A stretch of 39,105 bases of DNA, taken from positions 1-39,105 of IMG/VR virus record IMGVR_UViG_3300018420_000002. One strand, given 5' to 3'. Below the pieces are notes generated by a model that had not been told where the DNA came from, did no database searches, and worked only from the letters and a program-made list of their open reading frames with translations. A program made the position numbers and the translations under genes. Each line of letters starts with the position of its first letter. Position 1 is the stretch's first letter. The stretch comes from a virus. Below, piece by piece: positions 8,492-23,494 of the stretch.

Positions 8492-10711
8492 ATGGCATTA
8501 GTATCTACTAGCATACCAAACCTATTGAATGGGGTTAGTCAGCAACCTGCTCCTTTACGTCAGGTTACACAGGGAGAAACTCAAACTAATGCCCTGTCAT
8601 CAGTAATTGATGGATTGATTAAACGCCCACCTACAGAGCATATCCAAGAAATACTAAGTGATGCCACAAGCAACGCTGCTATACATGTAGTGCGTATTAG
8701 TGATAATGAAAGACATATCTTTATCGCAAGGAAAGAGCCTACTAATACCAACGCTAATAATGTAGTACTTTATATATTTAAAGATGATGGTACTTCTCTA
8801 ACTTACACCTATGTTGGGGGGGCTGGTATCCCTGGCAATACAATGCCTAGTTACTTAGAGTGTGAGAATCCATCGGAAGACCTAAAGTTTTTATCCTTTC
8901 AAGATGAAGCCCCTCCTACATTTAGTTCAAATTTAAGAATGCTTGGGGTAAGGACTTTAGTATTAAATACAACAAAAACTGTTGCAATGGAACCCACACC
9001 AATTCATAGCCCTGTTAGCTTAAGTGCTACAGTGTATAACGACTTTAGTGACTTACCTGACGGCCATCCAGTTAGTAGTGGGGGGACTGGGGTATCACCA
9101 CTTAACCAGCATTATGAGATTGCAGGGTCACAAAATAACAACTTTGATAGTTACTATGTAAAATGTACAGGAACGGGGCAGTCAACTACTACCTATGAAG
9201 AGACTAAAAGGCCAAATTCTTTATTCGACAATAATGTGCAAATGCAAAATAGAATTGATGCTGCCACAATGCCTTTTGAAATATCGGGACATATTAATGT
9301 TACTAACCAAACTTTAACGTATAATGTATTTAGCCTCGACCTAGGCGAAAGAACAGTAGGGGATGAGCTTTCTGCGCCTGAACCTTCATTTGTTGGCGCA
9401 CCCATCACTAACATGTTCTTTTACAAAAACAGACTAGGTTTATTGAGTGGTGAAAATATAGTAATGAGCGCAGTAGGGGATTACTTCAGGTTCTTCCCTA
9501 AAACAGTTACAACTGTACTAGATGATGGCCCTATTGATGTTACAGTAGGTAGTGCTAAATCTTCTCCATTAAAACAGGCTGTAACATTTAATGACTCCTT
9601 AACAATCTTTTCATCTAATACTCAATTTAAAATAGAAAACACAGGTAACTTAACACCTAGAACTATCTCTGTTGTACCTAGTACTGACTTTGAAAATGAC
9701 GGGTCTATAACGCCAGTAGGGGCAGGTAACTTCCTTTACTTTGTTTCTAAGAAAGGCAACTTCTCTAGTGTACATGAATATTATATTGAAGAAGATTCTA
9801 TAACAACAGATGCTTTAGATGTTACTGCACATGTTCCTAAGTATTTACCAAAAAATATTTTTAAGTTAGCAAGCTCTAGTAATGAAAATATACTAGCCGC
9901 TTTATCCGCAGAAACACCTAACAAGCTGTATGTTTATAAGTGGTTTAGTGACGGGCAACAAAAACTACAATCTAGTTGGTCTACTTGGGAGTTAGCTCCA
10001 GGGGCAACTATACTTGACATTAACATCGTTGAAAGTGAGATGTTCTTAGTTGTTAGTTACTCAGACGGGACAGTCCTTGAGAAAATAGACTTACAATACA
10101 TTGATGACTCTGAGTTAAATTATTGTGTAAGACTTGACCGTAAAGTAGAGCTTACAGGCACTTATGACTCAAATACAGATACGACTACTTGGACACTCCC
10201 TTACACATACTCTGGTGTAATAAAGGCCATTAGGACTAACCAGTGGGCTGCCTACAGAGGGGCTGACATTACGGTAACTAGACCTACTAACACCACAGCA
10301 GCTATTTCAGGAGACTACTCAGGTGGCTCATTTATTATGGGCATTCCTTACACAATGACATACGGGTTTTCCCCACAGTATGTGAGAGAGAAAGATGGCG
10401 CACAGTCTATACAGTCTGGGCGTTTACAAATGAGAACCATGAGGGTTGCCTTTGAGAACACTGGGTTCTTCAAGATAGAGGTAACTCCTGACCATAGGCA
10501 AACCTATGATTATGTGTATTCAGGGGTAACTCTTAACCAAGCAGGTTCAGTTATTGGGGAAGTAGTCCTTAATGACGGTACCTTTAGGTTCCCTCTCCAG
10601 TCTAAGAATGACCGTGTAACTATAGAAATTAAATCAGATAGTTTCTTACCCTGCGCTTTCCAGAGTGCTGAGTGGGAAGGATTCTACAACATAAGGTCTC
10701 AGAGAATATAA
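8492..10711 (+). CDS. Tail tubular protein B (nozzle), T7 gp12-like
   Basis: 739 residues (T7 gp12 is 794). The N-terminus STSIPNLLNGVSQQPAPLRQVTQGETQTNALSSVIDGL is diagnostic. Other family segments are FFYKNRLGLLSGENIVMSAVGDYFRFFPKT, and the end, FQSAEWEGFYNIRSQRI. It forms the hexameric nozzle of the short tail, which carries the fibers and opens for DNA release. The stop TAA shares its last A with the next ATG. Confidence 0.96.
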   Translation: MALVSTSIPNLLNGVSQQPAPLRQVTQGETQTNALSSVIDGLIKRPPTEHIQEILSDATSNAAIHVVRISDNERHIFIARKEPTNTNANNVVLYIFKDDGTSLTYTYVGGAGIPGNTMPSYLECENPSEDLKFLSFQDEAPPTFSSNLRMLGVRTLVLNTTKTVAMEPTPIHSPVSLSATVYNDFSDLPDGHPVSSGGTGVSPLNQHYEIAGSQNNNFDSYYVKCTGTGQSTTTYEETKRPNSLFDNNVQMQNRIDAATMPFEISGHINVTNQTLTYNVFSLDLGERTVGDELSAPEPSFVGAPITNMFFYKNRLGLLSGENIVMSAVGDYFRFFPKTVTTVLDDGPIDVTVGSAKSSPLKQAVTFNDSLTIFSSNTQFKIENTGNLTPRTISVVPSTDFENDGSITPVGAGNFLYFVSKKGNFSSVHEYYIEEDSITTDALDVTAHVPKYLPKNIFKLASSSNENILAALSAETPNKLYVYKWFSDGQQKLQSSWSTWELAPGATILDINIVESEMFLVVSYSDGTVLEKIDLQYIDDSELNYCVRLDRKVELTGTYDSNTDTTTWTLPYTYSGVIKAIRTNQWAAYRGADITVTRPTNTTAAISGDYSGGSFIMGIPYTMTYGFSPQYVREKDGAQSIQSGRLQMRTMRVAFENTGFFKIEVTPDHRQTYDYVYSGVTLNQAGSVIGEVVLNDGTFRFPLQSKNDRVTIEIKSDSFLPCAFQSAEWEGFYNIRSQRI

Positions 10712-11175
10712 TGTTAAGTATTGTAGATGCACTACACCGTGATGCTATTAACTTAGCTCCACGTTTACGTCCTATAGATAAACTTGAAGTAGAGGCTACA
10801 GGTAGCACTCCACACAACAGCTTAGTTAAAGCATTTAATTTACCTAAAGCTAAAGTGTATTCAGGTGTTACTGAAGATAAAGATGTAGTTTTTATGTGTG
10901 GTGTATCTCAGTGCTTACAAGACCCTAATAACGGTGTGATATGGATGCTTACTTCTGAGTTAGCTAAAGACCATAAAAGAGACATATTAAAACTTAGTAA
11001 ACCTACAATAGATGATTTATGTAAAGGCTTTAAAAGCGTCTATAACCTTATACATAAAGACAACAAAAGCAGTATTAGATGGCTAGAGTGGTGTGGGTTT
11101 GAAGTGTTAAAACATAGAACCTACAACCAAGGTGGAGAAGACTTTTACCTTTTGATAAAGAGGATTGAACAATGA
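10711..11175 (+). CDS. GNAT-like virion/assembly protein, T7 gp13 position
   Basis: 154 residues. The C-terminal part contains VYNLIHKDNKSSIRWLEWCGFEV, the same arrangement as in T7 gp13 and related acetyltransferase-fold proteins, where a helix before R-W-L-x-W-x-G-F is typical. The middle VVFMCGVSQCLQDPNNGVIWML matches the beta-strand region of the fold. In T7, gp13 is needed for assembly of the internal core; no acetylation activity has to be assumed. The start overlaps the nozzle stop codon, and the stop overlaps the gp14-like start. Confidence 0.8.
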   Translation: MLSIVDALHRDAINLAPRLRPIDKLEVEATGSTPHNSLVKAFNLPKAKVYSGVTEDKDVVFMCGVSQCLQDPNNGVIWMLTSELAKDHKRDILKLSKPTIDDLCKGFKSVYNLIHKDNKSSIRWLEWCGFEVLKHRTYNQGGEDFYLLIKRIEQ

Positions 11176-11705
11176 GCGCATTCGCAGCAGGAATGGCGGG
11201 CTTACAGTTTGGCTCCCAGGTGGCAGCAGGGTACAGCCAGTTAGAGATGCAGAAGCTACAGAATCAGTATGCCAGAGAAAGTGCATTAGCTGCTATCAAC
11301 CTGGACAGGGAGATACTCATTCGGAGGACTAATGAGGAAGCTAGAGCTTACACCCAAGCAAACATAGATTTACAACGCAGGTCTATGGAAGCTGAGGCAT
11401 CTGCCAATGTTTCAGCAGGTGAAGCGAACATTTCAGGCATCTCTGTAGACAGGATTAAAGACAATATTAAAAGGCAAGAAGGGCAAATATCTGTGCGTCA
11501 GAAGCAGTCCTTTGATAGCCGTATGGCAAACATAGATGACCAGTTTACAAAGGCTGCACAGGGTATGGTGGCTAGAATGCAAGGGCTTACACCTCCTGCA
11601 CAACCCAACCTGTTAGCTATGGCTGCTCAGAGCTTTGGGCCAATGTTAGCTGATACTAGTGTAGCTAGTGACTTTGATGCATGGTGGGGGAGTAAGTTCT
11701 CATGA
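11172..11705 (+). CDS. Internal virion (ejection) protein, T7 gp14-like
   Basis: 177 residues (T7 gp14 is 196). An alanine/glycine-rich amphipathic N-terminus (SAFAAGMAGLQFGSQVAAGYSQ) is followed by long charged helices and ANVSAGEANISGISVDRIKDN. This is the layout of gp14, which leaves the virion and forms a channel in the outer membrane. It overlaps its neighbours by four bases on each side (ATGA type), so it is translationally coupled with the gp13- and gp15-like genes. Confidence 0.88.
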   Translation: MSAFAAGMAGLQFGSQVAAGYSQLEMQKLQNQYARESALAAINLDREILIRRTNEEARAYTQANIDLQRRSMEAEASANVSAGEANISGISVDRIKDNIKRQEGQISVRQKQSFDSRMANIDDQFTKAAQGMVARMQGLTPPAQPNLLAMAAQSFGPMLADTSVASDFDAWWGSKFS

Positions 11706-13438
11706 GTAGACAACCAACACAAGATTTACAGGGGCTAGATAATGTAGCTACCCCTTCAGCTACTATGGTAGATGCCTATGCGGGCGCACCTGGTATGCCT
11801 AGAGAGTCTTCTGCGGGTCAGCTTGCAGATGCTCTAGGGACATTAAGCAGGGCAGGGATGAAGTCTGCTGCACAGGCTAAGGCAGATAAAGAAAAGTTAG
11901 ATGCTGAGAAAGCAGCAACGTATGCAGCTAGATTTAAAGGAGAAGAAGGCGAGTTCCTAGACTCAGTTAAGCTAGGCGAAACCCATGCACATCTATCAGA
12001 CACAGTGGTCGCTAAGATTGTCCAAGACAAGCACCACAATGATTTCTACTCAAAAACTAAGGCACACCTCAACGGGCTAGATAATGACCTAAGATTCAAT
12101 GTAGTGGCTTTAGAGAAGGAGTTTGAAAGGCTTGTTGCTGAAGCCTCAGAGAAGACAGAGGGGATGGACTTTGTGCAGTCAGGGGCTGTCTCAGGAACTG
12201 TAGCAGCTATCACAGAACTGAGAAGTACATTCTCTTCACAACGAGACAAGTTTACTAGAGAACAATCTAAAACTAATACACAAGCAAGTATTTCTAACAT
12301 ACTGGATAAGTATGATTTATCTACTAATGATGGACAAATATCTGCTGTTACTTTAATCAATGATTTAGATGATACACTTAAAGAAACATCACCATTTAGT
12401 AAGTCAGAAGATAAGCAAATTATAGTAGATGCACTAATTACTTATAATAAGAATAACCCAGATTCAGGTGCTGTTAATCTTATCCAAAAGATACCCTACC
12501 TACAAGGAAAAGTAACTGACCAAAAGTTAAACGAAGCTGCGCCAGTTATTGCAGGTTTATCCCTACAAAAGTTAAGAGATGATGCTCAACTTAAAAAGCT
12601 ACAAAACCAACAGACACTAGATGAAGCTCAAGTAAAATTTAACAATCTATCTTTCAATAACGACAAGCCAGGTATTAGAGCAGCCATGGTTAAAGCCAAC
12701 AGCTTAACTGGTGAAGACGCTGCGCTTGGTGCTGCTATGTATAAGATGGGTGAAGTTGCCCTAGCATCTGCTGATGTTGATGTAGATGTAAGCCAGGAGT
12801 TTGCTGCTACATACGAAGATAGCCTGGTTGTTAAAGCTATCAAAGGTGAGCTTAAGAGGGCTGATGTACTTACAGAACTTGCTTCTAGCACTGATATGCG
12901 TGAGGAAGATAAGGAAGCTATACGAGGCAACCTAGACAACATTATGGCTGGTAGTGACCTCATAGCTGCCTCTAAGCATAGCACAGAGTTCAACAATAGA
13001 GTTGGCGATGAAGCCAGAGCTATTGACACATCCATACTTAATATAGGCGGTAAGCTAGAAGGGCGTTCTCTTGAGAGCCGTGTGCGTGACCTATGGGACA
13101 CCACAGTGCTAGACCTTATTGTCGAGTACGCTACAGAGAACAATGCAAAGCCTGAAGGTAGAGCATTACGAGCTATCTATGACGAAGCTGAAGCTATCAC
13201 TGAGAAGCGTATGAATAAGATACGAGGTCTCCCCACTTCTAGTCCACAGCCTGAACCTCAGCCTGAACCTCAGCCTACACTTGAAGTAGGTACAATAATA
13301 ACTGCTGCTGATGGTACAAAAGCTAAGTACCTAGGCGGTGACATAAATGATGATGGTAACTTTGAAGTTATTACAGAAGAAGAAGAAGATACTGGTAGTT
13401 CCATTATAGAAGAACTAGTTGAAACACTCACACAATAA
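11702..13438 (+). CDS. Internal virion (ejection) protein, T7 gp15-like
   Basis: 578 residues (T7 gp15 is 747), almost entirely helical and rich in Ala, Asp, Glu and Lys. The N-terminal third (LADALGTLSRAGMKSAAQAKADKEK) and the position between gp14- and gp16-like genes support the call. In T7 this protein forms the periplasmic tunnel with gp16. The last 90 residues depart from this: there is a PQPEPQPEPQPT linker (about residue 515), then a small acidic segment, EVGTIITAADGTKAKYLGGDINDDG, that looks like a short beta domain, and an acidic tail. I cannot name that end domain. Confidence 0.85.
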   Translation: MSRQPTQDLQGLDNVATPSATMVDAYAGAPGMPRESSAGQLADALGTLSRAGMKSAAQAKADKEKLDAEKAATYAARFKGEEGEFLDSVKLGETHAHLSDTVVAKIVQDKHHNDFYSKTKAHLNGLDNDLRFNVVALEKEFERLVAEASEKTEGMDFVQSGAVSGTVAAITELRSTFSSQRDKFTREQSKTNTQASISNILDKYDLSTNDGQISAVTLINDLDDTLKETSPFSKSEDKQIIVDALITYNKNNPDSGAVNLIQKIPYLQGKVTDQKLNEAAPVIAGLSLQKLRDDAQLKKLQNQQTLDEAQVKFNNLSFNNDKPGIRAAMVKANSLTGEDAALGAAMYKMGEVALASADVDVDVSQEFAATYEDSLVVKAIKGELKRADVLTELASSTDMREEDKEAIRGNLDNIMAGSDLIAASKHSTEFNNRVGDEARAIDTSILNIGGKLEGRSLESRVRDLWDTTVLDLIVEYATENNAKPEGRALRAIYDEAEAITEKRMNKIRGLPTSSPQPEPQPEPQPTLEVGTIITAADGTKAKYLGGDINDDGNFEVITEEEEDTGSSIIEELVETLTQ

Positions 13439-13450
13439 TAGGTGAATTAT

Positions 13451-16400
13451 ATGGGTAAGTTTAGTGATGCTTTAGAGCAACAACAAAGCACTACAGGTAA
13501 GTTTGGTGCAGCTATCTTACAGCAGCAAGCCCCATCAGGATTTAATGCTACTTACCAAGACACTGATGAAACACTGTACGACAATGACCTAGTAAATGAT
13601 GTGAACTTTCAGAAGGCATCTGAAGTTATCTACAACATGAATAACAGTGTAGATGCTGAACGCTTAGGTTCACCAGAAGACTACGCTAGGTACGGTATCG
13701 AGACAATGGGCTGGTTCAACTGGAACTTACCTAAGATGTCTGTAGATGCTAACCGTATCTCTGGAGCTACAGAAGACCAGAAGAAAGCCTTTCTATACAT
13801 GATGGAATCCTATGATGATTTAGGTGTGTCATGGAATGGAGCAAAGCGTTTCTTTAAAGGTGTGTTACTAGACCCTACTACCTATGTGGGGTTGTCTACA
13901 TTTGGTTTCGGCCTATTAGGTAAGGAAGGGACTAAACAAGCAGGTAAGCAAGGTGTAAAAGAATTACTCAAACGCTCAACTAGAGGCGGTATCATTGCGG
14001 GTGTAGAAGCAGGTGTCTATACCGCAGTTGATGATGTAAACAGACAAGTAGTTGAGACTGCTGTATCTGGTGAAGATATAGATGTAGGTAGAGTAGTTAA
14101 GTCTGGTGCTATCGGAGTTGGGGCAGGGTTTACTTTAGGGACTGGCGTTACCGCAATAGTCAACAAGTATGCAGGTAAGTCTACTAAAGAGATAGCTGAG
14201 ACTGTTGATGAAGCTAAGTTAGCTGATGACTTGCCTGAAGTAAAAGATGTAGTTGTAGAAGAGCCTGTTGAGGAAGTTGTTGCAGAGGTTGTTCCCCCTG
14301 CTCCTATTGACACTAGAGGGCAGGGACAGCAATACCACGGCACATCTACAGAGTTAGGGGAGTTTGGTGAAGGGCATGATTACTACTCTAGCATGAACAT
14401 TTATGGGCAGGGATTCTACACCACTGACGCTTTAGATGTTGCAGGGGGGTACAGTAAAAAAGGCAAAGGCGGTAACCCTACTAAGTACAAAGTTATCAAG
14501 ACTAATGAAGCAAAGTTGTATGACCTTGATAAGCCTTTAGATGACGAAGCCTTGGAGTTGTTAAGTGAGTCCACTGAGTTTGGGGCTGATTGGCTACAAG
14601 ATATGGCTCCTAACCCTACAGTTCGGGATGCCTTCGATGAGCTAAGAGATTGGTCTGCTGGTGAGGGCATACCTGCTGATGAAGTACAGGAGATGTTTGA
14701 CAGCTTTAGGTACTTATTGGAGCAAAAAGGTTTCCAAGGATACACCCATGTAGGCGGAGGGTTTACTGGGACTAACTCACACAAGGTTGAAATCTTTTGG
14801 AACCCTAAAGACCATGTACGTTTAGAGAAGATAGAGGATGCTCCTGTAGCACCTAAAGAGCCTGTAGCACCTAAAGAGCCTGTAGCTCCTAAACAGCCGA
14901 TAGTAACAACAGGAGAGCGAATCCGAGAGAACCTTAATGGTGTAATCCAAGCTATCAAGCGTACAGTTCCTACAGGTAAAGCTGCATCATTACGTCCAGA
15001 TGGCACTCAGGACTTAACTGAGCTAGTAGAGTCTGTAGCTCCCTTCAAACAAATGCTTGAGGAAGCCTCTGCTAAGAACCCACAGGAACTTGCAGAATAC
15101 CTGAAGAAGATAGAACTCTCTGATGGGGAAGCACAGTTCCTTGAAATAGCTACAACCCAGACAGTATCTGCACTTAAGGTTAAGGTTTATAACTTACGTC
15201 TTAAGCAAAAGCAGTTAGATGGCGAAGAAGCTCTAGCAATCCAGAAGCAAATCGATGAGATAGAAGAAGTCACTGCACCTCTGGATGAACTAGATGTAGC
15301 TATGTCTACTATCACAGGGCAACGCTTACGAGCTAGACAAACAGGTGAGAACACAGGTGCGCTAAGAGGCAAAACAATCCAAAGCCTTATGGCTGAGGGG
15401 CTTACCCGTACAGAAGCTGAACGTCAGTTCGATGCTATCTTTGCAGAGAAACTACAGAAGCGTGAAGTGCGTGAAGTCACTGCTAAGTTTGATGCTCAGA
15501 TAGAAGAAGCTAGAAAGGCTGGTAACACTTCTGAGTACCTAAGACTTAAGCATGAGAAGAAAGTAAAGTTAGATGAGTTTAAGCAAGATGTCATAAAGGA
15601 AGAAAGTCTAACTGGTACAGGTATCTACGAAGCTATCAATAAGCCTATCAGAGTTATGAATGAGGTGATGATTAGCTTCGTATTCTCTCCAGCTACTCTG
15701 ATTGTAAACACCGTACCATCACTAGCTAAGTCTCTTTATAAGCCTTTCCTTAACAACTTAATGCAGGATGGTTTAACTGCTACGTCTAGGAAGAAGATGG
15801 TGGCTGAGTATTCAGCTATGGCATCTATGATTCCTACAGCAGCTAAGATGGCTAAGGCTGCATGGCGTTACGAGAAGTCTATTCTGACAGGTGACTCTGC
15901 TAGATTCTTAGAAGAGTACAATGTTATCCCTAAGAAATACAAAGGGCATTGGCTGAGACTATTCCCTAGAGCCTTGCTTGCTACCGATGCGTTCTTTGAG
16001 AACATTCATTACAGAGGCTACACAGTAGGTAATGCTACTGGTAAGGCTATGGAAGAGGGTGTAGCTAAAGGGCTGAAAGGTAAGGAGCTAGATGACTTTG
16101 TAAAAGCACAAACTCAGAAAGCCTTAGATAAAGCCTATGCACCTGAAGAGACTGCTATCGACATTCTATTACAAGAGGGTATCTCAAGAGGACTGAAAGA
16201 CAAAGAGCTAGAGAACTTTGTCAGTAAGGAACTCGCTAATAATGAATCTACCTTTGTCAAAGCTACTGACCAAGAGGGGCGTAACTACGTTCAAGATGTT
16301 CTCTTCAAACGAGACTTCTCTGGTAAAGGAGCTGCCTCAAGTGCTGCAAGAGGGTACGAATCATTTGTAAACAAACACCCTGTAATGCGTTTAGCAGGGC

Positions 16401-17641
16401 AGTTGTTCTTCCGTACACCTGTGCGTGTATTTGAGGAAGGCATAAGAATGACTCCAGGGCTTAACTTAGTTAGTCCAAAATTCATTGCTGACCTGAAAGG
16501 TGATAATGGCACTATGCGCCAAGCAAGAGCGCAGGGCGAAGCTATGATGTCTTATGCCATAGCGGGCTATGTGTTTACACAGTATGCCACAGGTAATCTT
16601 ACTGGTGCTATGGGTACAAACTATAAGCAAAGAAGACAGGGAGAAAACACGGGAGGACAGGAGCCATACTCAATTAAATTTAGTGATGGCAGTACCTTTA
16701 ACTACCGTAACTTCGACCCCTTCTCTACGCCTATAAAAATACTTGTTAATGCTATGGAAAGAGCAGAGACATTAGCATACAGAAGAGAGCAAGGTGAGCG
16801 TGTTAGTGATGACCTTATTGCACAGACACACGCATCTGTATCGATTGCTGTAGCTTCTATCTTCCAATCTATCCGTGACGCTAACCTTACATCAGGTATC
16901 GATGAAGTAATTAAAGTTATCAAGGCATCAGAAGATGAGGATGGCGGTGAGAAGTTGTTTAAGTATTTCGGACAGAAAGTACAGACATTCTTACCTAATA
17001 CATACTACAAGATGCAGTTACTTGATAGTCCTGTACTTGGTGACCCCATTACGTTAGAGCAGTTCATCAGACAGAGATTCAACCCTGATGACCCATTAGT
17101 ACCTAAGCAATACACTGCACTAGGCAGAGCAAGAACGCTTAGTAACCCTGCTGCGGGACTATACTACTTCAATACAGCTACTGTAGATGAACGTAAGCGT
17201 GGCGTACCTGAGAAGGAACTAGAGGTAGAACAGTTCTTATACAAACTGGCTCAGGTAGGTAACACACACTTTACGGCTTCCTACAAGTACGAAAAGTATA
17301 TGGGCGATGTAGACCTTAGAACTCAACCAACTAAAGACGGCAAGGAAAGCTACTACGATAGATGGATGAGATATACCCATGAAACTAAAGTAGGCGGTAG
17401 AGGACTGGTAGATGTTCTACACAGTATTCAAGGCTTACCTATGGGTACAGCATCCACAGCAGGAATAGCTGAAAAGCAAACTAGAAACATCATAAATAAG
17501 TACCGTGAGATTGCTATGAACAAGTTACTTAATGAAGAAGGTAACTTAATACAACAACGCAGAAGCGTACTTGAAAAAGAGAATAACGCCCTTTCAGGAC
17601 AGCGTTCTTCAGACAATGTACCGTTTAATATTGGGAATTAA
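13451..17641 (+). CDS. Giant internal virion (ejection) protein, T7 gp16-like, with inserted ADP-ribosyltransferase-like domain
   Basis: 1396 residues from ATG 13451 (AGGTGA upstream); GTG 13442 is less likely. T7 gp16 is 1318 and starts with a transglycosylase domain; I see no such domain here. Instead residues about 293-465 read YHGTS (Y295-H296-G297-T298), GQGFYTTDALDVAGGYS (319 on) and KVEIFWNPKDHV (E447), the order expected of an ADP-ribosyltransferase fold. This segment lies between a Val/Glu/Pro linker (about 258-293) and a repeated VAPKEP linker (about 463-482). The rest is helical with hydrophobic patches, and residues 868 and 908 begin two copies of a 20-residue motif (E/Q-E-G-x-x-x-G-L-K-x-K-E-L-x-x-F-V). 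The protein should be ejected into the cell with the DNA. Confidence 0.9.
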   Translation: MGKFSDALEQQQSTTGKFGAAILQQQAPSGFNATYQDTDETLYDNDLVNDVNFQKASEVIYNMNNSVDAERLGSPEDYARYGIETMGWFNWNLPKMSVDANRISGATEDQKKAFLYMMESYDDLGVSWNGAKRFFKGVLLDPTTYVGLSTFGFGLLGKEGTKQAGKQGVKELLKRSTRGGIIAGVEAGVYTAVDDVNRQVVETAVSGEDIDVGRVVKSGAIGVGAGFTLGTGVTAIVNKYAGKSTKEIAETVDEAKLADDLPEVKDVVVEEPVEEVVAEVVPPAPIDTRGQGQQYHGTSTELGEFGEGHDYYSSMNIYGQGFYTTDALDVAGGYSKKGKGGNPTKYKVIKTNEAKLYDLDKPLDDEALELLSESTEFGADWLQDMAPNPTVRDAFDELRDWSAGEGIPADEVQEMFDSFRYLLEQKGFQGYTHVGGGFTGTNSHKVEIFWNPKDHVRLEKIEDAPVAPKEPVAPKEPVAPKQPIVTTGERIRENLNGVIQAIKRTVPTGKAASLRPDGTQDLTELVESVAPFKQMLEEASAKNPQELAEYLKKIELSDGEAQFLEIATTQTVSALKVKVYNLRLKQKQLDGEEALAIQKQIDEIEEVTAPLDELDVAMSTITGQRLRARQTGENTGALRGKTIQSLMAEGLTRTEAERQFDAIFAEKLQKREVREVTAKFDAQIEEARKAGNTSEYLRLKHEKKVKLDEFKQDVIKEESLTGTGIYEAINKPIRVMNEVMISFVFSPATLIVNTVPSLAKSLYKPFLNNLMQDGLTATSRKKMVAEYSAMASMIPTAAKMAKAAWRYEKSILTGDSARFLEEYNVIPKKYKGHWLRLFPRALLATDAFFENIHYRGYTVGNATGKAMEEGVAKGLKGKELDDFVKAQTQKALDKAYAPEETAIDILLQEGISRGLKDKELENFVSKELANNESTFVKATDQEGRNYVQDVLFKRDFSGKGAASSAARGYESFVNKHPVMRLAGQLFFRTPVRVFEEGIRMTPGLNLVSPKFIADLKGDNGTMRQARAQGEAMMSYAIAGYVFTQYATGNLTGAMGTNYKQRRQGENTGGQEPYSIKFSDGSTFNYRNFDPFSTPIKILVNAMERAETLAYRREQGERVSDDLIAQTHASVSIAVASIFQSIRDANLTSGIDEVIKVIKASEDEDGGEKLFKYFGQKVQTFLPNTYYKMQLLDSPVLGDPITLEQFIRQRFNPDDPLVPKQYTALGRARTLSNPAAGLYYFNTATVDERKRGVPEKELEVEQFLYKLAQVGNTHFTASYKYEKYMGDVDLRTQPTKDGKESYYDRWMRYTHETKVGGRGLVDVLHSIQGLPMGTASTAGIAEKQTRNIINKYREIAMNKLLNEEGNLIQQRRSVLEKENNALSGQRSSDNVPFNIGN

Positions 17642-17646
17642 AAACT

Positions 17647-20600
17647 ATGTCTTATGCACTTACTAGACTCACAGGTGACGGTAGTACACAGACGTTTACT
17701 ATCGGATTTGCCTATAGGGACAAAGCAGATATTGTAGTTAAAGTAGATGGAATCCTTAAGTATCTAACATCAGATTACACCTTTGTTACTGATAGTCAGA
17801 TTAGGTTCAACACTGCTCCCGCTACTGATGCAGCTATCGTCATCCGCAGGGCAACTAGTCAACACAACAGGCTAGTAGATTACGTCTCTGGTGCTGTGTT
17901 CAGAGAATCTGACCTGGACACTGACAGCACACAGGGCTTCTTCATGGCTCAAGAGTCTATCGATATTGCAAATGACTCTATGGTTAAGAATGACAGCAAC
18001 CTTTTTGATGCAGAGAATGTACGTGTCGTTAATGTAGCTGACCCTGTAGGTGACAAAGATGCAGCAAACAAAGAGTATGTACAATCAGCTTTAGCTGACC
18101 AGAATCAGCGTTATTACGGCTCTTCGGCTACAGCTCCCTCATCTCCAGATGTAGAGGAAGGTGACTTATATTGGGACACTACTTCAAAGGGGATGAAGGT
18201 ACACAACGGTACAGGCTGGCAAGATGCTACAGCAGCACTAAGCACAGCTTCAGCAAGAACTGTTTATGTTGTAGGGACAACTTCAGGGGCTTATGGGGGG
18301 AGTACACATATATTCCCAACAGCGTATGATGCTGGCTTTGTAGATGTTTTCCTTAATGGGGCAAAACTTCAGGAAGGCACAGACTTTATAGCAACTAATG
18401 GGTACAACATAGAGCTAACTAGTGCCGCTACAAATGGCGATATTATAGACATAATTAGCTATGGCACACAAACACTCACAAATGTAGAAGCTATAATTAA
18501 TAATGTATCTGACATCAATACAGTTGCTCCACATGTAGCTAGTATTGGGACAGTGGCGGCTGATTTGTCAGGCAGTAATACCATTGGTTCCTCCCTAACT
18601 AATGCTACTAATGCAGCTTCAAGCGCAAGTGCGGCTGCTACTTCTGAGTCAAACGCTGCTACTTCTGAGTCAAACGCTGCTACTTCTGAGGCAAACGCTG
18701 CAACTTCAGAGACAAATGCAGCTACTTCAGAGACAAATGCAGCAGCATCAGCCGCATCTATTACTGGCTTAACAACAGCTACAGGCGCAGAAGGCACTAG
18801 TGTTTCTTACAATAGCACTACAGGGGTTTTAACTGTACCTAAAGGTGATACAGGAGACGGCTTTACTGGAGGGGCTTACAATTCTAGTACAGGGCAAATA
18901 ACATTTTCATCTAATGATGGGATTGGCTTTACAACTGCTGACATAAGAACAGACAGTGCCGTTAAACTCATTAGACAGCCCTCTGGCACTACAATAGCAG
19001 AAGTAGATGCCTTTGGTTTAGATGTTGACGGCTCTACTAGGTTCACAGGTTCCGTAGCTATCAACGGCCTTCGTGCTCCTGCCTACGCTCTAGATGTAGA
19101 AGATGATGTATCTACAGTAGCTGCACTTACATGTACTACTGGTCAAGGGCACTTACAATTAAACGCAAGTGGTACTACCTCTGGTAAAGTTCAAGGTATT
19201 GCTGCTGATGCAGATGATTTGATTTTCTATACAAATAGTAGTGAAAGCGTCCGCATTCAAAATAATGGACGTGTAGGGATTGGCGAAGCATACCCTGGGT
19301 ACTCTTTACATGTAAGCGGGGATACAGATGACATCATAGCCAGCTTTAACAGTACAGACTCTGGGGCGTACATACGTCTTGCAGACAATGCATCTGGTAC
19401 TGGCGCATTAGTTGGTGCTGTAGGAGAAGAACTGTCGCTACTTACAGGCACTACCGAAAAGGTACGTTTAAAAGCCAACGGTAACTTTGGTATAAACGTA
19501 TTAAATCCTACCGAAGCACTGGATGTTGACGGCAACATTAACGCATCTGGAAGTATAACCGCTTCTGGCTACAATTCTAGTAACTGGGACAGTGCATACA
19601 ACGATAAAATAACAGCAGTTAATTACACTGGCTCTACCCTAACGCTTACTCAGCAAGATGGTGGTACATTAACTACGACTATCAATGCTTCTGGTGGCGG
19701 TACAGCTACAGGTGTAGACCTAGCGGATAACGTGAAGGCTACCTTTGGTGATAGTGATGACTTAGAGATTTACCATGATGGCTCACACAGTTATATCGAT
19801 GAGGTAGGGACAGGTAATTTATATATAAGGTCAAATGCTGTTGCTTTTGGAAAACCAGACGGCACTGAGTTCTTTGGCTCGCTAAACAGCGATGGCAGTT
19901 GTTTCTTTAAATATGACAACGATACCAAGCTAGCCACAACATCCACAGGTATAGACGTTACTGGCACAGTGACTGCTGATGGGCTAGATGTCAACTCAGG
20001 AACAATCAACAAAGTAGCTACTTTTACAAGCACTGATGGAACTGCATTTATACAAGTATCTGACAGTAATACTACAGCTTCAGCACATGGTTATGGAGTC
20101 AATGGTAATAATCTGAGTTTGTATGCTAACGATACTGAAAAGATGCGTATCACAGCAGATGGTAACGTAGGTATAGGTACTACTGCTCCTGCTTCGCGTT
20201 TGCACGTCAATAGTGGTGCGAGTGATATAGCCGCAACATTAGAATCGTCAGATAGTGCAGTTAGACTGTCTTTTGCAGAAAGCGGTTCTACTGGTAATAA
20301 TCACATATCATTAGAAAGTAATGAGTGGTATATCTATAGCAATTCTACTGAACGCCTACGCATAGACTCATCAGGCAACGTAGGTATAGGTACTAGTAGT
20401 CCAGTTTCCATTGGCGGACACACAGGCGTATTAACCTTACATGGAGATAACGCAACTGCAATAGTCCTCAAAGATAATGTTAGCAGAAAAGACATTAGGC
20501 TAGACGATGGTAACTTGTCTGTGCGTAATTCGGTAGGTGACGCGCACTTAATGGTTACTAATGGCGGCAATGTAGGTATAGGTACTACTAGTCCTGCATA

Positions 20601-22323
20601 CAAGCTAGATGTTGCAGGGTCAGCTAGACTAGCATCTTCTGGTGGTAATGAGTTAATAGTAGAGGCAACAACAGCAAACGCTTCTACACTCAAATTAAAG
20701 AACACTGCTAATACATATTCCGTAGGCATCACACATAACGGTGCTTACAATATTTATGATGTCAACGCAGCTACTGAACGACTCCGCATAGACTCATCAG
20801 GCAACCTATTGGTGGGTAAGACTTCACCAGACGGTACAGTGGCAGGATTTGAAGCTAGAAGTAATGGTTATTTATTAGCAACGGTTGATGGAAGTAGCTG
20901 TGCAAACTTCAACAGAAAAACTGACGATGGCACTATTGTCAACCTACAAAAAAACGGCACAACTGTAGGGTCTATTGGTACAACAAGCGGTAATTTATAC
21001 ATTGAAGATGATGATGCAGGTTTAAGGTTTTCTAGCGCATCTGATGAGGTTGCGCCTTGTGGTAGTGGCGGTGCTAATAGAGATAACGCTATTAACTTAG
21101 GTGCATCTAATAATCGCTTCAAAGACCTCTACCTATCTGGCAGTATACATGGAGACACCGTCTTTAAGAACAATGCAGGGACTACAGAGTACGCTAGGTT
21201 TAACTCAGGAGGCTATTTAGGTATAGGGGACTCCGTTCCAATTGCAAAACTGCACGTTCAAGGCACATCTCAAGGTTCTGGTTGTAGCATTACGCCAAGC
21301 ACTACAGCATTCTTTGACGCTCAATCAAGTAATTTCATTGGAATAGGTGGTGGAAGTACATCTACTTTAGGAATTAATTTTGGTGATTCTGCTGACGCAG
21401 ACTCTGGTAGAATATATTACAGAAATTCAGTAGACACGATGGCGTTCTATACGCTTGCTAACGAACGCATGACTATTGACCAAAGCGGTAATGTTGGTGT
21501 GGGTACAACTACTCCTTTGTCTAGAATGCACCTAAAGAAATATAGCACTGCATCTGGAGTAGCCCCAAATTCAGGGGCAGCTTTATTCCTAGATGATGCA
21601 TCAAGCGCAGTGCTTCAAATGGGTGCGGCTTACTATGGGACATCTTCAATCCTTTTTGGTAAAGGAGCGTCAGGCAGTACCAGTGCTGATAATGATATAG
21701 GGTCAATATCCTATAATAACTACTATAACTACCTCGCCTTCAGAGTAAACGCAGGTGAAAGAATGCGTGTTGACTCTACTGGTAGCCTTCTTGTAGGGCA
21801 AACTACAGCAGGGTCGTATGGTGCAAAGGTAAGAGTAGGCGGTGTAACTGAATCAACTTATTATGTTTCTACAGGCTCTGGCACTAGGTTTTTAGGTTCG
21901 GGGTATTTCGGAAGCGCAGGAATAAATGTAGAAGCATATACAGACAGTTCTACAACTACTGTAAATCTAGCAAGTTTTAAGAGTTTATCTGGAGTGCAGA
22001 AAGGTTCAATTAGTCTTGTCGCTAATACCGTATCATATAACACAACATCTGATGAACGTCTGAAAGAAAACATCAAAGATGCAGAGGATGCAGGTGATAA
22101 GATTGATGCTATCCAAGTTAGACAGTTTGACTGGAAAGATGGTGGTCAGCATCAAGATTATGGTGTAATAGCACAGGAGTTAGATAAGGTTGCACCTGAA
22201 GCTGTAACTAAAGGTGAGACTGAAGATGACATGATGTCAGTAGATTATAGTAAACTTGTACCAACCTTAATTAAAGAAATACAAACATTACGCAACAGAG
22301 TTGCAGAATTGGAGAAAAACTAA
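17647..22323 (+). CDS. Tail fiber with T7-type anchor and S74 intramolecular chaperone
   Basis: 1558 residues, about three times T7 gp17 (553). Residues 1-150 match the T7 fiber anchor (ALTRLTGDGSTQTFTIGF, LKYLTSDYTFV, then DLDTDSTQGFFMAQESIDIA), which docks to the nozzle. A heptad stretch (AATSESN repeats, about 330-364) and a PKGDTGDG segment follow. The long shaft repeats E-R-(L/M)-R-I-D-S-x-G-N-V-G-I-G-T-T-x-P many times, as in beta-helical fibers. From S1468, SDERLKENIKDAEDAGDKI through DYGVIAQELDKVAPEAV to a terminal coiled coil is an S74 chaperone domain. In that family the serine, with the nearby lysine, cuts off the last part after trimerisation. This is the main receptor-binding candidate. 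Confidence 0.95.
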   Translation: MSYALTRLTGDGSTQTFTIGFAYRDKADIVVKVDGILKYLTSDYTFVTDSQIRFNTAPATDAAIVIRRATSQHNRLVDYVSGAVFRESDLDTDSTQGFFMAQESIDIANDSMVKNDSNLFDAENVRVVNVADPVGDKDAANKEYVQSALADQNQRYYGSSATAPSSPDVEEGDLYWDTTSKGMKVHNGTGWQDATAALSTASARTVYVVGTTSGAYGGSTHIFPTAYDAGFVDVFLNGAKLQEGTDFIATNGYNIELTSAATNGDIIDIISYGTQTLTNVEAIINNVSDINTVAPHVASIGTVAADLSGSNTIGSSLTNATNAASSASAAATSESNAATSESNAATSEANAATSETNAATSETNAAASAASITGLTTATGAEGTSVSYNSTTGVLTVPKGDTGDGFTGGAYNSSTGQITFSSNDGIGFTTADIRTDSAVKLIRQPSGTTIAEVDAFGLDVDGSTRFTGSVAINGLRAPAYALDVEDDVSTVAALTCTTGQGHLQLNASGTTSGKVQGIAADADDLIFYTNSSESVRIQNNGRVGIGEAYPGYSLHVSGDTDDIIASFNSTDSGAYIRLADNASGTGALVGAVGEELSLLTGTTEKVRLKANGNFGINVLNPTEALDVDGNINASGSITASGYNSSNWDSAYNDKITAVNYTGSTLTLTQQDGGTLTTTINASGGGTATGVDLADNVKATFGDSDDLEIYHDGSHSYIDEVGTGNLYIRSNAVAFGKPDGTEFFGSLNSDGSCFFKYDNDTKLATTSTGIDVTGTVTADGLDVNSGTINKVATFTSTDGTAFIQVSDSNTTASAHGYGVNGNNLSLYANDTEKMRITADGNVGIGTTAPASRLHVNSGASDIAATLESSDSAVRLSFAESGSTGNNHISLESNEWYIYSNSTERLRIDSSGNVGIGTSSPVSIGGHTGVLTLHGDNATAIVLKDNVSRKDIRLDDGNLSVRNSVGDAHLMVTNGGNVGIGTTSPAYKLDVAGSARLASSGGNELIVEATTANASTLKLKNTANTYSVGITHNGAYNIYDVNAATERLRIDSSGNLLVGKTSPDGTVAGFEARSNGYLLATVDGSSCANFNRKTDDGTIVNLQKNGTTVGSIGTTSGNLYIEDDDAGLRFSSASDEVAPCGSGGANRDNAINLGASNNRFKDLYLSGSIHGDTVFKNNAGTTEYARFNSGGYLGIGDSVPIAKLHVQGTSQGSGCSITPSTTAFFDAQSSNFIGIGGGSTSTLGINFGDSADADSGRIYYRNSVDTMAFYTLANERMTIDQSGNVGVGTTTPLSRMHLKKYSTASGVAPNSGAALFLDDASSAVLQMGAAYYGTSSILFGKGASGSTSADNDIGSISYNNYYNYLAFRVNAGERMRVDSTGSLLVGQTTAGSYGAKVRVGGVTESTYYVSTGSGTRFLGSGYFGSAGINVEAYTDSSTTTVNLASFKSLSGVQKGSISLVANTVSYNTTSDERLKENIKDAEDAGDKIDAIQVRQFDWKDGGQHQDYGVIAQELDKVAPEAVTKGETEDDMMSVDYSKLVPTLIKEIQTLRNRVAELEKN
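18634..18738 (+). repeat. Five 21-bp tandem repeats coding AATSExN heptads in the tail fiber
   Basis: Five consecutive units encode AATSESN, AATSESN, AATSEAN, AATSETN and AATSETN. The first units are nearly identical in DNA, and the later ones differ at third positions. The seven-residue period suggests a trimeric coiled coil joining the anchor to the shaft. Unit number may vary between relatives. Confidence 0.9.
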
Positions 22324-22614
22324 ATGAAATTTTCAATAGCAGAACTTGAAAGAAACACAGACGGTGGCGTTATCTCAGCACACTGGACTGTCAATAAAAC
22401 ATCAGGAGACAATACGGCTTCTGCTTACGGCTCATGTAGCTTTGTGCCTGATTCAACTAATGAGGGCTATATACCCTATGCTGAATTAACAGAAGCATCT
22501 GTAATTGAGTGGGTTAAAGGTGGGGTTATAGACCTTGAAGCATTAGAAGCAGCCTTGGATGCTGACCTTGCTGAACAAGCATCACCAACCATACTTACAG
22601 GAACACCTTGGTAA
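22324..22614 (+). CDS. Conserved fiber-locus protein of unknown function
   Basis: 96 residues. ATG 22324 directly follows the fiber stop codon; the only purine-rich site, TTGGAGAAA, lies inside the end of the fiber gene. The start, MKFSIAELERNTDGGVISAHWTV, looks like a family of about 100-residue proteins seen next to fibers in marine and other phages. Later segments are EGYIPYAELTEASVIEWVKG and an acidic helix. No enzymatic motif is visible. A structural or fiber-assembly role is plausible from its place between two fiber genes, but it is unproven. Confidence 0.8.
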   Translation: MKFSIAELERNTDGGVISAHWTVNKTSGDNTASAYGSCSFVPDSTNEGYIPYAELTEASVIEWVKGGVIDLEALEAALDADLAEQASPTILTGTPW

Positions 22615-22642
22615 TTAAAATTGTGAAGGAGGTAGTCACAAC

Positions 22643-23494
22643 ATGTCAAAAGCTAGAGACTTAGGGGATGCAGCAAACCAAGCAAACTTCCTCGATAATG
22701 TAACTTCAGATATAAACACCAGCCTTAACTCAGCAGCAGCAATTCCCGCAGGTCTTATCTTACCCTTTGGTAACACTACAGCTCCCACAGGTTACCTAGC
22801 ATGTGACGGTTCAGATGTATCTAAAGAAACATACGCTAACCTCTTTGCAGCTATAGGGACTACCTGGGGGACGGCAGCTACCCCTACAACCCACTTCAAG
22901 CTACCTGACCTCAGAGGAGCCTTCCTGCGGGGGTCGGGTTCTCATGGCACAAGCAACATGGCAAACGGCAGTGCCTTTGCTGGGCAAGCTGTGGGTAGCT
23001 TTGAGAATGACCAAGTGCAAAACCATGCTCACACTATAACACTCGGTTATAATTCTAATGGCTCTACAGAAACAACAGCATCAACCACAAACGGTGCAAA
23101 CACTTTTACTTCTGGCAGAGCTGGCGAAGCATCGGCAATGGTAGTGAATGGTCAAGGAACCCCAAGAACAGGTGACGAAACCCGACCATTCAACGCAGGG
23201 ATACTCTACTGCATATCTACAGGCCCTTCAGTGGTTTCTAGTGGTTCTGGTGGTTCAGGTGGTTCAGGCAGTGGTGGTGGAACTGGTGGCGGCACAAGTA
23301 GTGGCGGTGGGTCAAGTAGCGGTGGCGGTAGCAGCAGTGGTGGCGGTAGTAGCAGCCCTACATCAACAACACCACACGCTAACTTTATGTCCACTGACGG
23401 AGAAATACTTGTAGATTCTACGGGAGAGGTACTAACAACAGAGACTGTAGACGATACAGTTGCACAGGTGAATACTAAACTAGGCGGTCTATAA
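22643..23494 (+). CDS. Short tail fiber with tail-collar domain and Gly/Ser linker
   Basis: 283 residues, with AAGGAGG upstream of ATG 22643. Residues about 33-140 form a tail-collar domain: IPAGLILPFGNTTAPTGYLACDG, then YANLFAAIGTTWG, FKLPDLRGAFLRGSG and a His-containing segment, QNHAHTITLGY. Such domains trimerise and bind receptors. After the conserved end GILYCISTG comes an almost pure Gly/Ser run of about 45 residues (DNA 23239-23353), then a 40-residue tail ending VDDTVAQVNTKLGGL. The C-terminal tag reappears in the next protein. The gene is joined to the subtilase gene by TAATG. Confidence 0.9.
   Translation: MSKARDLGDAANQANFLDNVTSDINTSLNSAAAIPAGLILPFGNTTAPTGYLACDGSDVSKETYANLFAAIGTTWGTAATPTTHFKLPDLRGAFLRGSGSHGTSNMANGSAFAGQAVGSFENDQVQNHAHTITLGYNSNGSTETTASTTNGANTFTSGRAGEASAMVVNGQGTPRTGDETRPFNAGILYCISTGPSVVSSGSGGSGGSGSGGGTGGGTSSGGGSSSGGGSSSGGGSSSPTSTTPHANFMSTDGEILVDSTGEVLTTETVDDTVAQVNTKLGGL

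What the first reader, a model, noticed from the sequence alone, without database searches (positions are those of the whole stretch)
14327..14845. ADP-ribosyltransferase-like domain inserted in the ejected giant core protein
Residues about 293-465 of the gp16-like protein show Y-H-G-T, then G-Q-G-F-Y-T-T-D with a following A-G-G-Y-S, and finally K-V-E-I-F-W-N-P (E447), the order seen in ADP-ribosyltransferase folds such as the ART domains of phage polyvalent proteins. The segment is bounded by low-complexity linkers on both sides, like a cassette, while the usual N-terminal transglycosylase is missing. An ejected protein with this activity could modify host proteins at the moment of entry, as T4 Alt does.
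Basis: partly seen in the sequence, partly recalled or inferred. Interest (0 to 1): 0.75.

Follow-up and report, generated by a model that had tools for sequence, protein, structure and literature searches.

The report
Swappable enzyme cassette in ejected protein
A short-tailed phage carries, inside a giant protein that it probably shoots into the bacterium with its DNA, a domain folded like enzymes that tag host molecules using NAD, and close relatives carry a different domain of that kind, or nothing, at the same spot.

Summary
The segment is real and has an ADP-ribosyltransferase (ART) fold: AlphaFold2 on 44 sequences gives pLDDT 87, pTM 0.84. The best solved match is a domain of the cyanophage A4 pre-ejectosome (9k3a_B, Z 13.5, 156 residues); known ARTs follow at Z 5.5-7.1. 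It lies in the gp16-position protein of a T7-like virion gene block and is a cassette in a fixed slot: L004 (93/96% identical outside) has the slot empty, L002 (99/97%) has another ART-like segment, while L003 has the same cassette at 97% but 68/66% outside. The slot is filled in 6 of 62 distinct relatives, 4 ART-like and 2 otherwise. dN/dS is 0.05. ARTs in injected polyvalent proteins are known (PMC5512222); an ART exchange slot in a T7-like core protein I did not find in ten searches. Most likely an ejected effector acting on a host target at entry; packaging, catalysis, target and delivery are inferred.

The parts
13442..17641 (+). gp16-position internal core (ejection) protein, 1399 aa, host of the cassette
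   Evidence: ORF; homologous to LUZ100 gp47, annotated internal virion D (39.6% identity, 76% of the query covered); lies in T7 order after gp13- and gp14-like genes and before a fibre gene
14243..14930 (+). exchange slot: DNA similarity to L002, L004 and L005 stops at 14238-14242 and resumes at 14907-14931
   Evidence: blastn; for L010 the upstream match already ends at 14197, for L008 at 14155
14306..14836 (+). ART-fold cassette, 177 aa as modelled (type A)
   Evidence: AF2 pLDDT 87.2, pTM 0.84; Z 13.5 to 9k3a_B; ART-PolyVal E=2.8e-4 for window 14291-14845, below cut-off
14246..14305 (+). upstream low-complexity acidic/Val-rich linker
   Evidence: sequence
14837..14917 (+). downstream Pro-rich linker with VAPKEP-type repeats
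   Evidence: sequence
14336..14338 (+). His299 codon, first ART motif (YHGT)
   Evidence: 43 of 44 sequences, one gap
14417..14419 (+). Tyr326 codon, second ART motif (GQGFYTTD)
   Evidence: 44 of 44
14780..14782 (+). His447 codon, invariant residue near the expected third catalytic position
   Evidence: 44 of 44
14789..14791 (+).
   Evidence: Glu in 7 of 44 (window included), Arg or Lys in 30 of 44
11172..11705 (+). gp14-like internal virion protein
   Evidence: Pfam T7_gp14 E=4e-18
11702..13438 (+). gp15-position protein
   Evidence: synteny only; no Pfam hit, weak PHROG hit of unknown function
10672..11175 (+). gp13-like protein
   Evidence: PHROG 308 'internal virion protein' E=4.4e-30; Pfam Phage_T7_Gp13 below cut-off

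Best explanation
The segment is an ADP-ribosyltransferase-fold domain of the ART-PolyVal kind. It sits as an exchangeable cassette in one fixed slot of the largest core protein of a T7-like podophage. The phage packages the protein in the head and ejects it with the genome. The flexible linkers let the ART domain act as a tethered effector that uses host NAD+ to ADP-ribosylate a host macromolecule during entry; phages swap the cassette by recombination to change effector. Shown here: predicted fold, slot, exchange, purifying selection. Inferred from gene order and from a related solved pre-ejectosome: location in the virion. Inferred only: catalysis, target, exposure to the cytoplasm, benefit.
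For: Fold: AF2 pLDDT 87.2, pTM 0.84; Foldseek best hit 9k3a_B, E=1.9e-6; VIA Z 13.5, rmsd 3.1, 156 aligned; next rows diphtheria toxin (7.1), NatT, MbcT, an anti-CRISPR (6kyf), ParT, RES toxins, tankyrases at Z 5.5-7.1. 9k3a_B matches Anabaena phage A-4L ORF27 over all 1717 residues, so a domain of this fold has been seen inside a podophage pre-ejectosome. Slot: outside it L004 is 93/96% identical (N/C part) and empty, L002 99/97% with another ART-like segment, L005 76/73% with a third, L003 68/66% with the same cassette at 97%; 4 ART-like and 2 other fillings in 62 distinct proteins. A second, distant sublineage shows the same polymorphism: L037 type A, L085 type B (N end cut by the contig), L169 without a visible cassette. 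Mobility: the cassette at 78% identity in L024/L020, a carrier that shares nothing else with the others at E<=1e-5 when the cassette is masked, and at 45% in a Delftia protein with LPD37, LPD38 and ddrB-ParB. Later exchange: fourfold sites window/L003 identical 48/64 in the cassette, 131/254 in the C-terminal part (P=7e-4), 41/75 in the N-terminal part (P=0.014). Constraint: dN/dS 0.05 window/L003; His299, Tyr326, His447 kept. Virion gene order.
Against: No Pfam ART hit reaches the curated cut-off. The third catalytic position is not conserved, so some homologues may be inactive or use another residue. No significant sequence similarity to T7 gp16: a single-sequence hhalign hint (E=0.042) that would put the slot just after T7's membrane region was not reproduced with five gp16 sequences. 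Most relatives have the slot empty (56 of 62), so the domain is dispensable. The annotated ARTs score Z below 8, in the range the tool says may be only a common arrangement, although the 50 rows listed are all ART- or RES-type proteins as far as I can name them (for 6kyf and others this is recalled). No virion proteomics or activity data.
Confidence: 0.62

Rival explanations
1. Anti-defence effector: the ART cassette modifies or blocks a host immune protein rather than reprogramming host functions, which would explain why cassettes are swapped or lost quickly.
For: 6kyf, an anti-CRISPR protein, is among the fold matches (Z 6.5; that it is itself an ART is recalled); presence, absence and replacement among close relatives; the literature places phage ARTs in virus-host conflict (PMC9503650, passages).
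Against: No target known; the fold match is in a crowd of equal Z scores. This is a special case of the main explanation rather than a different biochemistry.
Confidence: 0.3
2. Inactive or binding-only ART fold: the domain has lost ADP-ribosyl transfer and serves as a nucleotide-binding or packing module in the core.
For: The third catalytic position is Arg or Lys in 30 of 44 sequences; empty-slot relatives show that the domain is dispensable.
Against: His and Tyr motifs nearly invariant; dN/dS 0.05; three different ART-like segments fill the slot, which a mere spacer would not require.
Confidence: 0.22
3. NAD+-consuming domain (hydrolysis or phosphorolysis, as recalled for MbcT and NatT) rather than a transferase.
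For: MbcT and NatT complexes are matches at Z 6.7.
Against: Diphtheria toxin and ParT, which transfer ADP-ribose, score about the same (6.2-7.1); the sequence hits are ART-PolyVal and DUF3990, no RES family was listed.
Confidence: 0.12
4. Assembly artefact: the slot differences are chimaeric metagenome contigs.
For: The near relatives are metagenome-derived IMG/VR contigs; L083 joins a gp16-like N part to sequence shared with L084 and might be a chimaera.
Against: Reading frame intact across both cassette ends in window, L002, L003, L005; both flanks of L004 (DNA 0.88-1.00) and L002 (0.93-0.98) match the window; an identical gp16-position protein lies in a second contig, L012; type C is in several contigs with identical proteins.
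Confidence: 0.03

Closest known systems
ART domains of polyvalent proteins (ART-PolyVal, PF18760; Tox-ART-HYD2 clade; Iyer et al. 2017, PMC5512222: section 9 read whole, other passages)
   Same: His and Tyr motifs; profile matches below cut-off; a homologous cassette (45% identity) in a Delftia protein with LPD37, LPD38 and ddrB-ParB; the paper predicts injection and names an ART in a podovirus N4-type virion RNA polymerase
   Different: Here one ART sits in the gp16-position core protein of a T7-like phage and no second effector domain was recognised; the Asp of the H-Y-D configuration was not located and the third position varies
Cyanophage A4 (A-4L) pre-ejectosome protein ORF27, PDB 9k3a chain B
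   Same: Same fold by structure (Z 13.5), YHGT and GSGTYF motifs, within a large protein of a podophage pre-ejectosome
   Different: No significant sequence match; the domain is near the C end of ORF27 (1420-1603 of 1717), here in the N-terminal third. The paper (PNAS 2025, e2423403122) is not held; I saw only its title in a reference list
T4 Alt
   Same: ART carried in the virion and injected (PMC5512222, section 9)
   Different: R-S-E clade; by the same section a separate head-packaged protein, not a domain of an ejection-channel protein
Lysozyme/transglycosylase swapping between gp15 and gp16 homologues (PMC8954989, passages)
   Same: Functional domain mosaicism in ejection proteins
   Different: Wall-degrading enzymes, not NAD-dependent effectors; no single slot with alternative fillings in the passages seen

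Membership tests
ADP-ribosyltransferase superfamily | ART fold | tested here: met
   AF2 model with Foldseek and VIA matches; the split sheet was not inspected, as no coordinates are given out
ADP-ribosyltransferase superfamily | His (strand 1) and Tyr (strand 2) of H-Y-x ARTs | tested here: met
   His299 43 of 44, Tyr326 44 of 44, in the first two predicted strands
ADP-ribosyltransferase superfamily | Third catalytic residue (Glu/Asp) | tested here: inconclusive
   Glu450 in 7 of 44, Arg/Lys in 30 of 44; His447 44 of 44; no superposition possible
ADP-ribosyltransferase superfamily | NAD-dependent transfer activity | not testable with these tools
   bench assay needed
ART-PolyVal (PF18760) | Profile score above the curated cut-off of 31.2 bits | tested here: not met
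   window segment 22.1 bits, E=2.8e-4; L003 23.1, L002 24.8, L005 26.9 bits. Related, not a Pfam member
Tox-ART-HYD2 clade | Asp in strand 5 | tested here: inconclusive
   no conserved Asp seen in the fifth or sixth predicted strand; Asp361 (41 of 44) lies in the fourth, Asp399 (43 of 44) in a helix; strand numbering may differ from the paper's
T4 Alt / R-S-E ARTs | Arg-Ser-Glu active site | tested here: not met
   His and Tyr at the first two positions
Polyvalent proteins | two or more domains of disparate activity in one polypeptide | tested here: not met
   Pfam and PHROGs list no second credible enzymatic domain in the 1399-aa protein
T7 gp16 / internal virion protein D | position in the virion gene block after gp13, gp14, gp15 and before the fibre | tested here: met
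   the LUZ100 homologue was assigned by synteny (PMC10134795, passages)
T7 gp16 / internal virion protein D | sequence homology to T7 gp16 | tested here: inconclusive
   hhalign E 0.0024-0.96, probability at most 12%, against five gp16 sequences; E 0.042 and 0.74 against T7 alone
T7 gp16 / internal virion protein D | packaged in the head and ejected | not testable with these tools
   needs virion proteomics

The most novel reading that the evidence does not exclude
T7-like ejection proteins of this lineage carry a dedicated effector bay, a single site where phages exchange NAD-dependent (and other) cassettes by recombination to match host targets or defences. The type A cassette uses a non-canonical H-Y-H active site instead of H-Y-E or H-Y-D.
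Probability: 0.3. Interest if true: 0.78.

Novelty: new variant of a known kind. Interest (0 to 1): 0.58.

Why it matters
If true, the channel-forming core protein of T7-like phages doubles as a delivery vehicle with an interchangeable payload, so effectors used in the first minutes of infection could be found by reading one site in related genomes. Near-isogenic pairs (filled and empty slot, about 95% identity elsewhere) make the benefit of an entry effector directly testable. The solved A4 pre-ejectosome may show where such a domain sits in the head.

Tried and rejected
Direct sequence hits of the cassette in the PDB: none meaningful. Annotated phages and plasmids: no match to the cassette (with the Delftia cassette, phages only). 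Structure of the type B cassette: the model failed (pLDDT 41.8, four sequences), so type B rests on Pfam (E=4.2e-5, below cut-off) and type C likewise (9e-6); as whole proteins L002 gives 0.0039 and L005 no hit at 0.1. Profile comparisons are weak: A-B probability 45% (E 2.3e-4), A-C 12%, B-C 0.4%. Placing the slot on T7 gp16 topology: a single-sequence hint was not reproduced, dropped. ART elsewhere in empty-slot records: 0 of 18, but the records are fragments and the same search missed 2 of the 5 ART-filled records, L005 and L037. The domain in the slot of L111 has no Pfam hit; that of L117 was not scanned. A residue match to PARP1 and diphtheria toxin from memory suggested that E450 sits at the catalytic-Glu position; a lead only, not used. 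Literature: ten searches listed no paper on an ART slot in T7-like core proteins; two searches showed only 15 of 44 and 12 of 127 papers, and the library lacks most subscription journals.

Rows dropped before counts: 8 of 81 proteins under 600 aa were dropped (six cut by contig ends, among them L140 of type C; L158 and L160 not cut), leaving 73, or 64 distinct; L037 and L085 were then left out of the 62 because they were found through the cassette. One search used 50 of the 55 loci (left out: L027, L035, L036, L078, L080) plus window, L003, L081 and the B and C carriers, 58 in all. Alignment A2 used 44 of those 53 type A entries (L020 and L025 standing for L024 and L037); nine were left out as apparent near-duplicates, not checked.

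Full report
1. The observation. The ORF at 13442-17641 (+) encodes 1399 aa from GTG. The motifs YHGT, GQGFYTTD, AGGYS and KVEIFWNP are present in order, flanked by an acidic Val-rich linker and a Pro-rich VAPKEP repeat. The segment alone matches ART-PolyVal at E=2.8e-4 and DUF3990 at 2.4e-3, both below Pfam's cut-offs; in the whole protein ART-PolyVal scores E=0.0036. PHROGs gives nothing useful.

2. Setting. The neighbours, in T7 order, are head-tail connector, scaffold, major capsid, tubes gp11 and gp12, gp13-like, gp14-like (T7_gp14, E=4e-18), a gp15-position protein, this protein, and a fibre. The nearest annotated relative is LUZ100 gp47, labelled putative internal virion D. Its authors assigned it by synteny because no sequence similarity to T7 gp16 could be detected (PMC10134795, passages). 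I also found none that is significant. Virion location is therefore an inference from gene order.

3. Fold. An alignment of 44 sequences (33-97% identical to the window's) gave an AF2 model with pLDDT 87.2 and pTM 0.84. Foldseek's only PDB match at E<=0.001 is 9k3a_B, 'Cyanophage A4 pre-ejectosome' (1.9e-6). VIA gives it Z 13.5, rmsd 3.1 over 156 residues at chain positions 1420-1603; the other rows are diphtheria toxin, NatT, MbcT, an anti-CRISPR, ParT, RES toxins, tankyrases and the like at Z 5.5-7.1, below the tool's mark of 8 for a trustworthy match. 9k3a_B matches ORF27 of Anabaena phage A-4L over all 1717 residues; its positions 1423-1449 show SLYHGT and GSGTYF. Among predicted viral structures 39 matches have E<=0.001, several named ART-PolyVal-like. 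So a domain of this fold has been seen in the pre-ejectosome of another podophage. I could not read the paper on it.

4. Active site. In the 44 sequences (window included) His299 is 43 (one gap), Tyr326 44, Asp361 41, Asp399 43, His436 39 and His447 44 of 44; position 450 is Arg 15, Lys 15, Glu 7, Asn 5, Val 2. The window keeps a Glu there, but the family does not. Polyvalent ARTs are described as His-Tyr-Asp with the Asp in strand 5 (PMC5512222, section 9); I could not find a conserved Asp at that place. The third residue is open, and a His447-based site is possible.

5. The slot. Outside residues 261-490 the window is 93/96% identical (N/C) to L004, whose slot is empty; 99/97% to L002, whose slot holds another ART-like segment (type B); 76/73% to L005 with a third (type C); and only 68/66% to L003, which has the same cassette at 97%. 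DNA similarity stops at 14238-14242 and resumes at 14907-14931 (L002, L004, L005). Between window and L003, fourfold sites agree at 48 of 64 in the cassette, 131 of 254 in the C-terminal part (P=7e-4) and 41 of 75 in the N-terminal part (P=0.014), which points to a later exchange of the cassette than of its surroundings. The window/L003 cassette has dN/dS 0.05. Base composition does not set it apart.

6. Survey. A profile scan returned 77 loci. With the window, LUZ100, L037 and L085 this is 81 proteins; 8 under 600 aa were dropped, leaving 73, or 64 distinct. Leaving out L037 and L085, 6 of 62 have a filled slot: type A (window, L003), B (L002 = L093), C (L005), and a different domain in L111 and L117; 56 have 63-99 aa between the anchors. 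For distant relatives the anchors depend on the alignment. Among the ten most similar (identity 0.75 or more in two anchor regions, window included) 4 are filled; three of the empty ones (L011, L095, L096) are close to each other. In a distant sublineage L037 (type A) and L085 (type B) are 54% identical in the C part but have unrelated fillings, and L169 shows none. Types B and C rest on sub-threshold Pfam hits (4.2e-5 and 9e-6); type B's model failed and the profile comparisons are weak.

7. Mobility. Type A was found in 55 loci of viral contigs, among them the window-identical contig and two fragments, and at one place in the genome collection, a Delftia tsuruhatensis contig, probably a prophage. 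With cassettes masked, 58 carriers of types A-C form 19 groups at E<=1e-5 and more than 60 residues (single linkage, so groups may be joined through other shared domains). The 78% identical copy in L024/L020 lies in a protein of its own group; the local alignment to the window runs on from the cassette to residue 558. The Delftia protein has LPD37, LPD38 and ddrB-ParB, so the family occurs in a polyvalent protein of the described kind. ART-PolyVal was not found in 18 of 18 empty-slot records, but that search also missed two of five filled ones.

8. How it most likely works. The core protein would be packed in the head and ejected at infection; in T7 the protein at this position passes into the envelope and its C-terminal part is thought to reach the cytoplasm (PMC8954989, passages). 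The ART domain, on flexible linkers, would meet NAD+ in the cytoplasm (general knowledge) and modify a host target as the genome arrives. Predicted fold, slot, exchange and constraint are shown; packaging is inferred from synteny and the A4 structure; catalysis, target and cytoplasmic exposure are unproven.

9. Known and new. ARTs in injected polyvalent proteins, including a podovirus one, are known (PMC5512222, section 9); about 3% of podoviruses were reported to encode ARTs (PMC9503650, passages); domain mosaicism of ejection proteins is known (PMC8954989, passages). Not listed by my ten paper searches: a single exchange slot for ART-like and other cassettes in a T7-like core protein. I rate it a new variant of a known kind.

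Noticed in passing
window 23494-25296: A 600-aa ORF downstream of the fibre genes has a subtilase (Peptidase_S8) domain, E=2.4e-14.
   Followed up: no
L111 and L117, slot of the gp16-like proteins (211 and 205 aa between anchors): The same slot holds a different segment (KPRYNYG..GFGLTFESD..); the L111 copy has no Pfam hit.
   Followed up: partly
L083 3-6836 and L084 4204-12450: L083 joins a gp16-like N part (70% identical to the window) to a type B cassette followed by a long stretch with an HEVYH motif (ATLF, E=0.007, below cut-off); L084 shows the same cassette and continuation, by eye, after a different N part. Recombination or a chimaeric contig.
   Followed up: partly
L028 298-1128 and L033 2996-3841: Small stand-alone type A proteins (277 and 282 aa); the N-terminal stretch of L033 weakly matches the pre-toxin TG domain (E=0.018, below cut-off).
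   Followed up: no
L026 6580-7053: A second segment that looks ART-like by eye (LLHGYS.., GVYLEE..) directly follows the type A cassette in a 1751-aa protein; no Pfam hit.
   Followed up: no
L091 (A-4L) ORF27, 20116-25269, - strand: The solved pre-ejectosome protein is annotated only as a tail protein, and Pfam gives its ART-like domain only E=0.2.
   Followed up: yes
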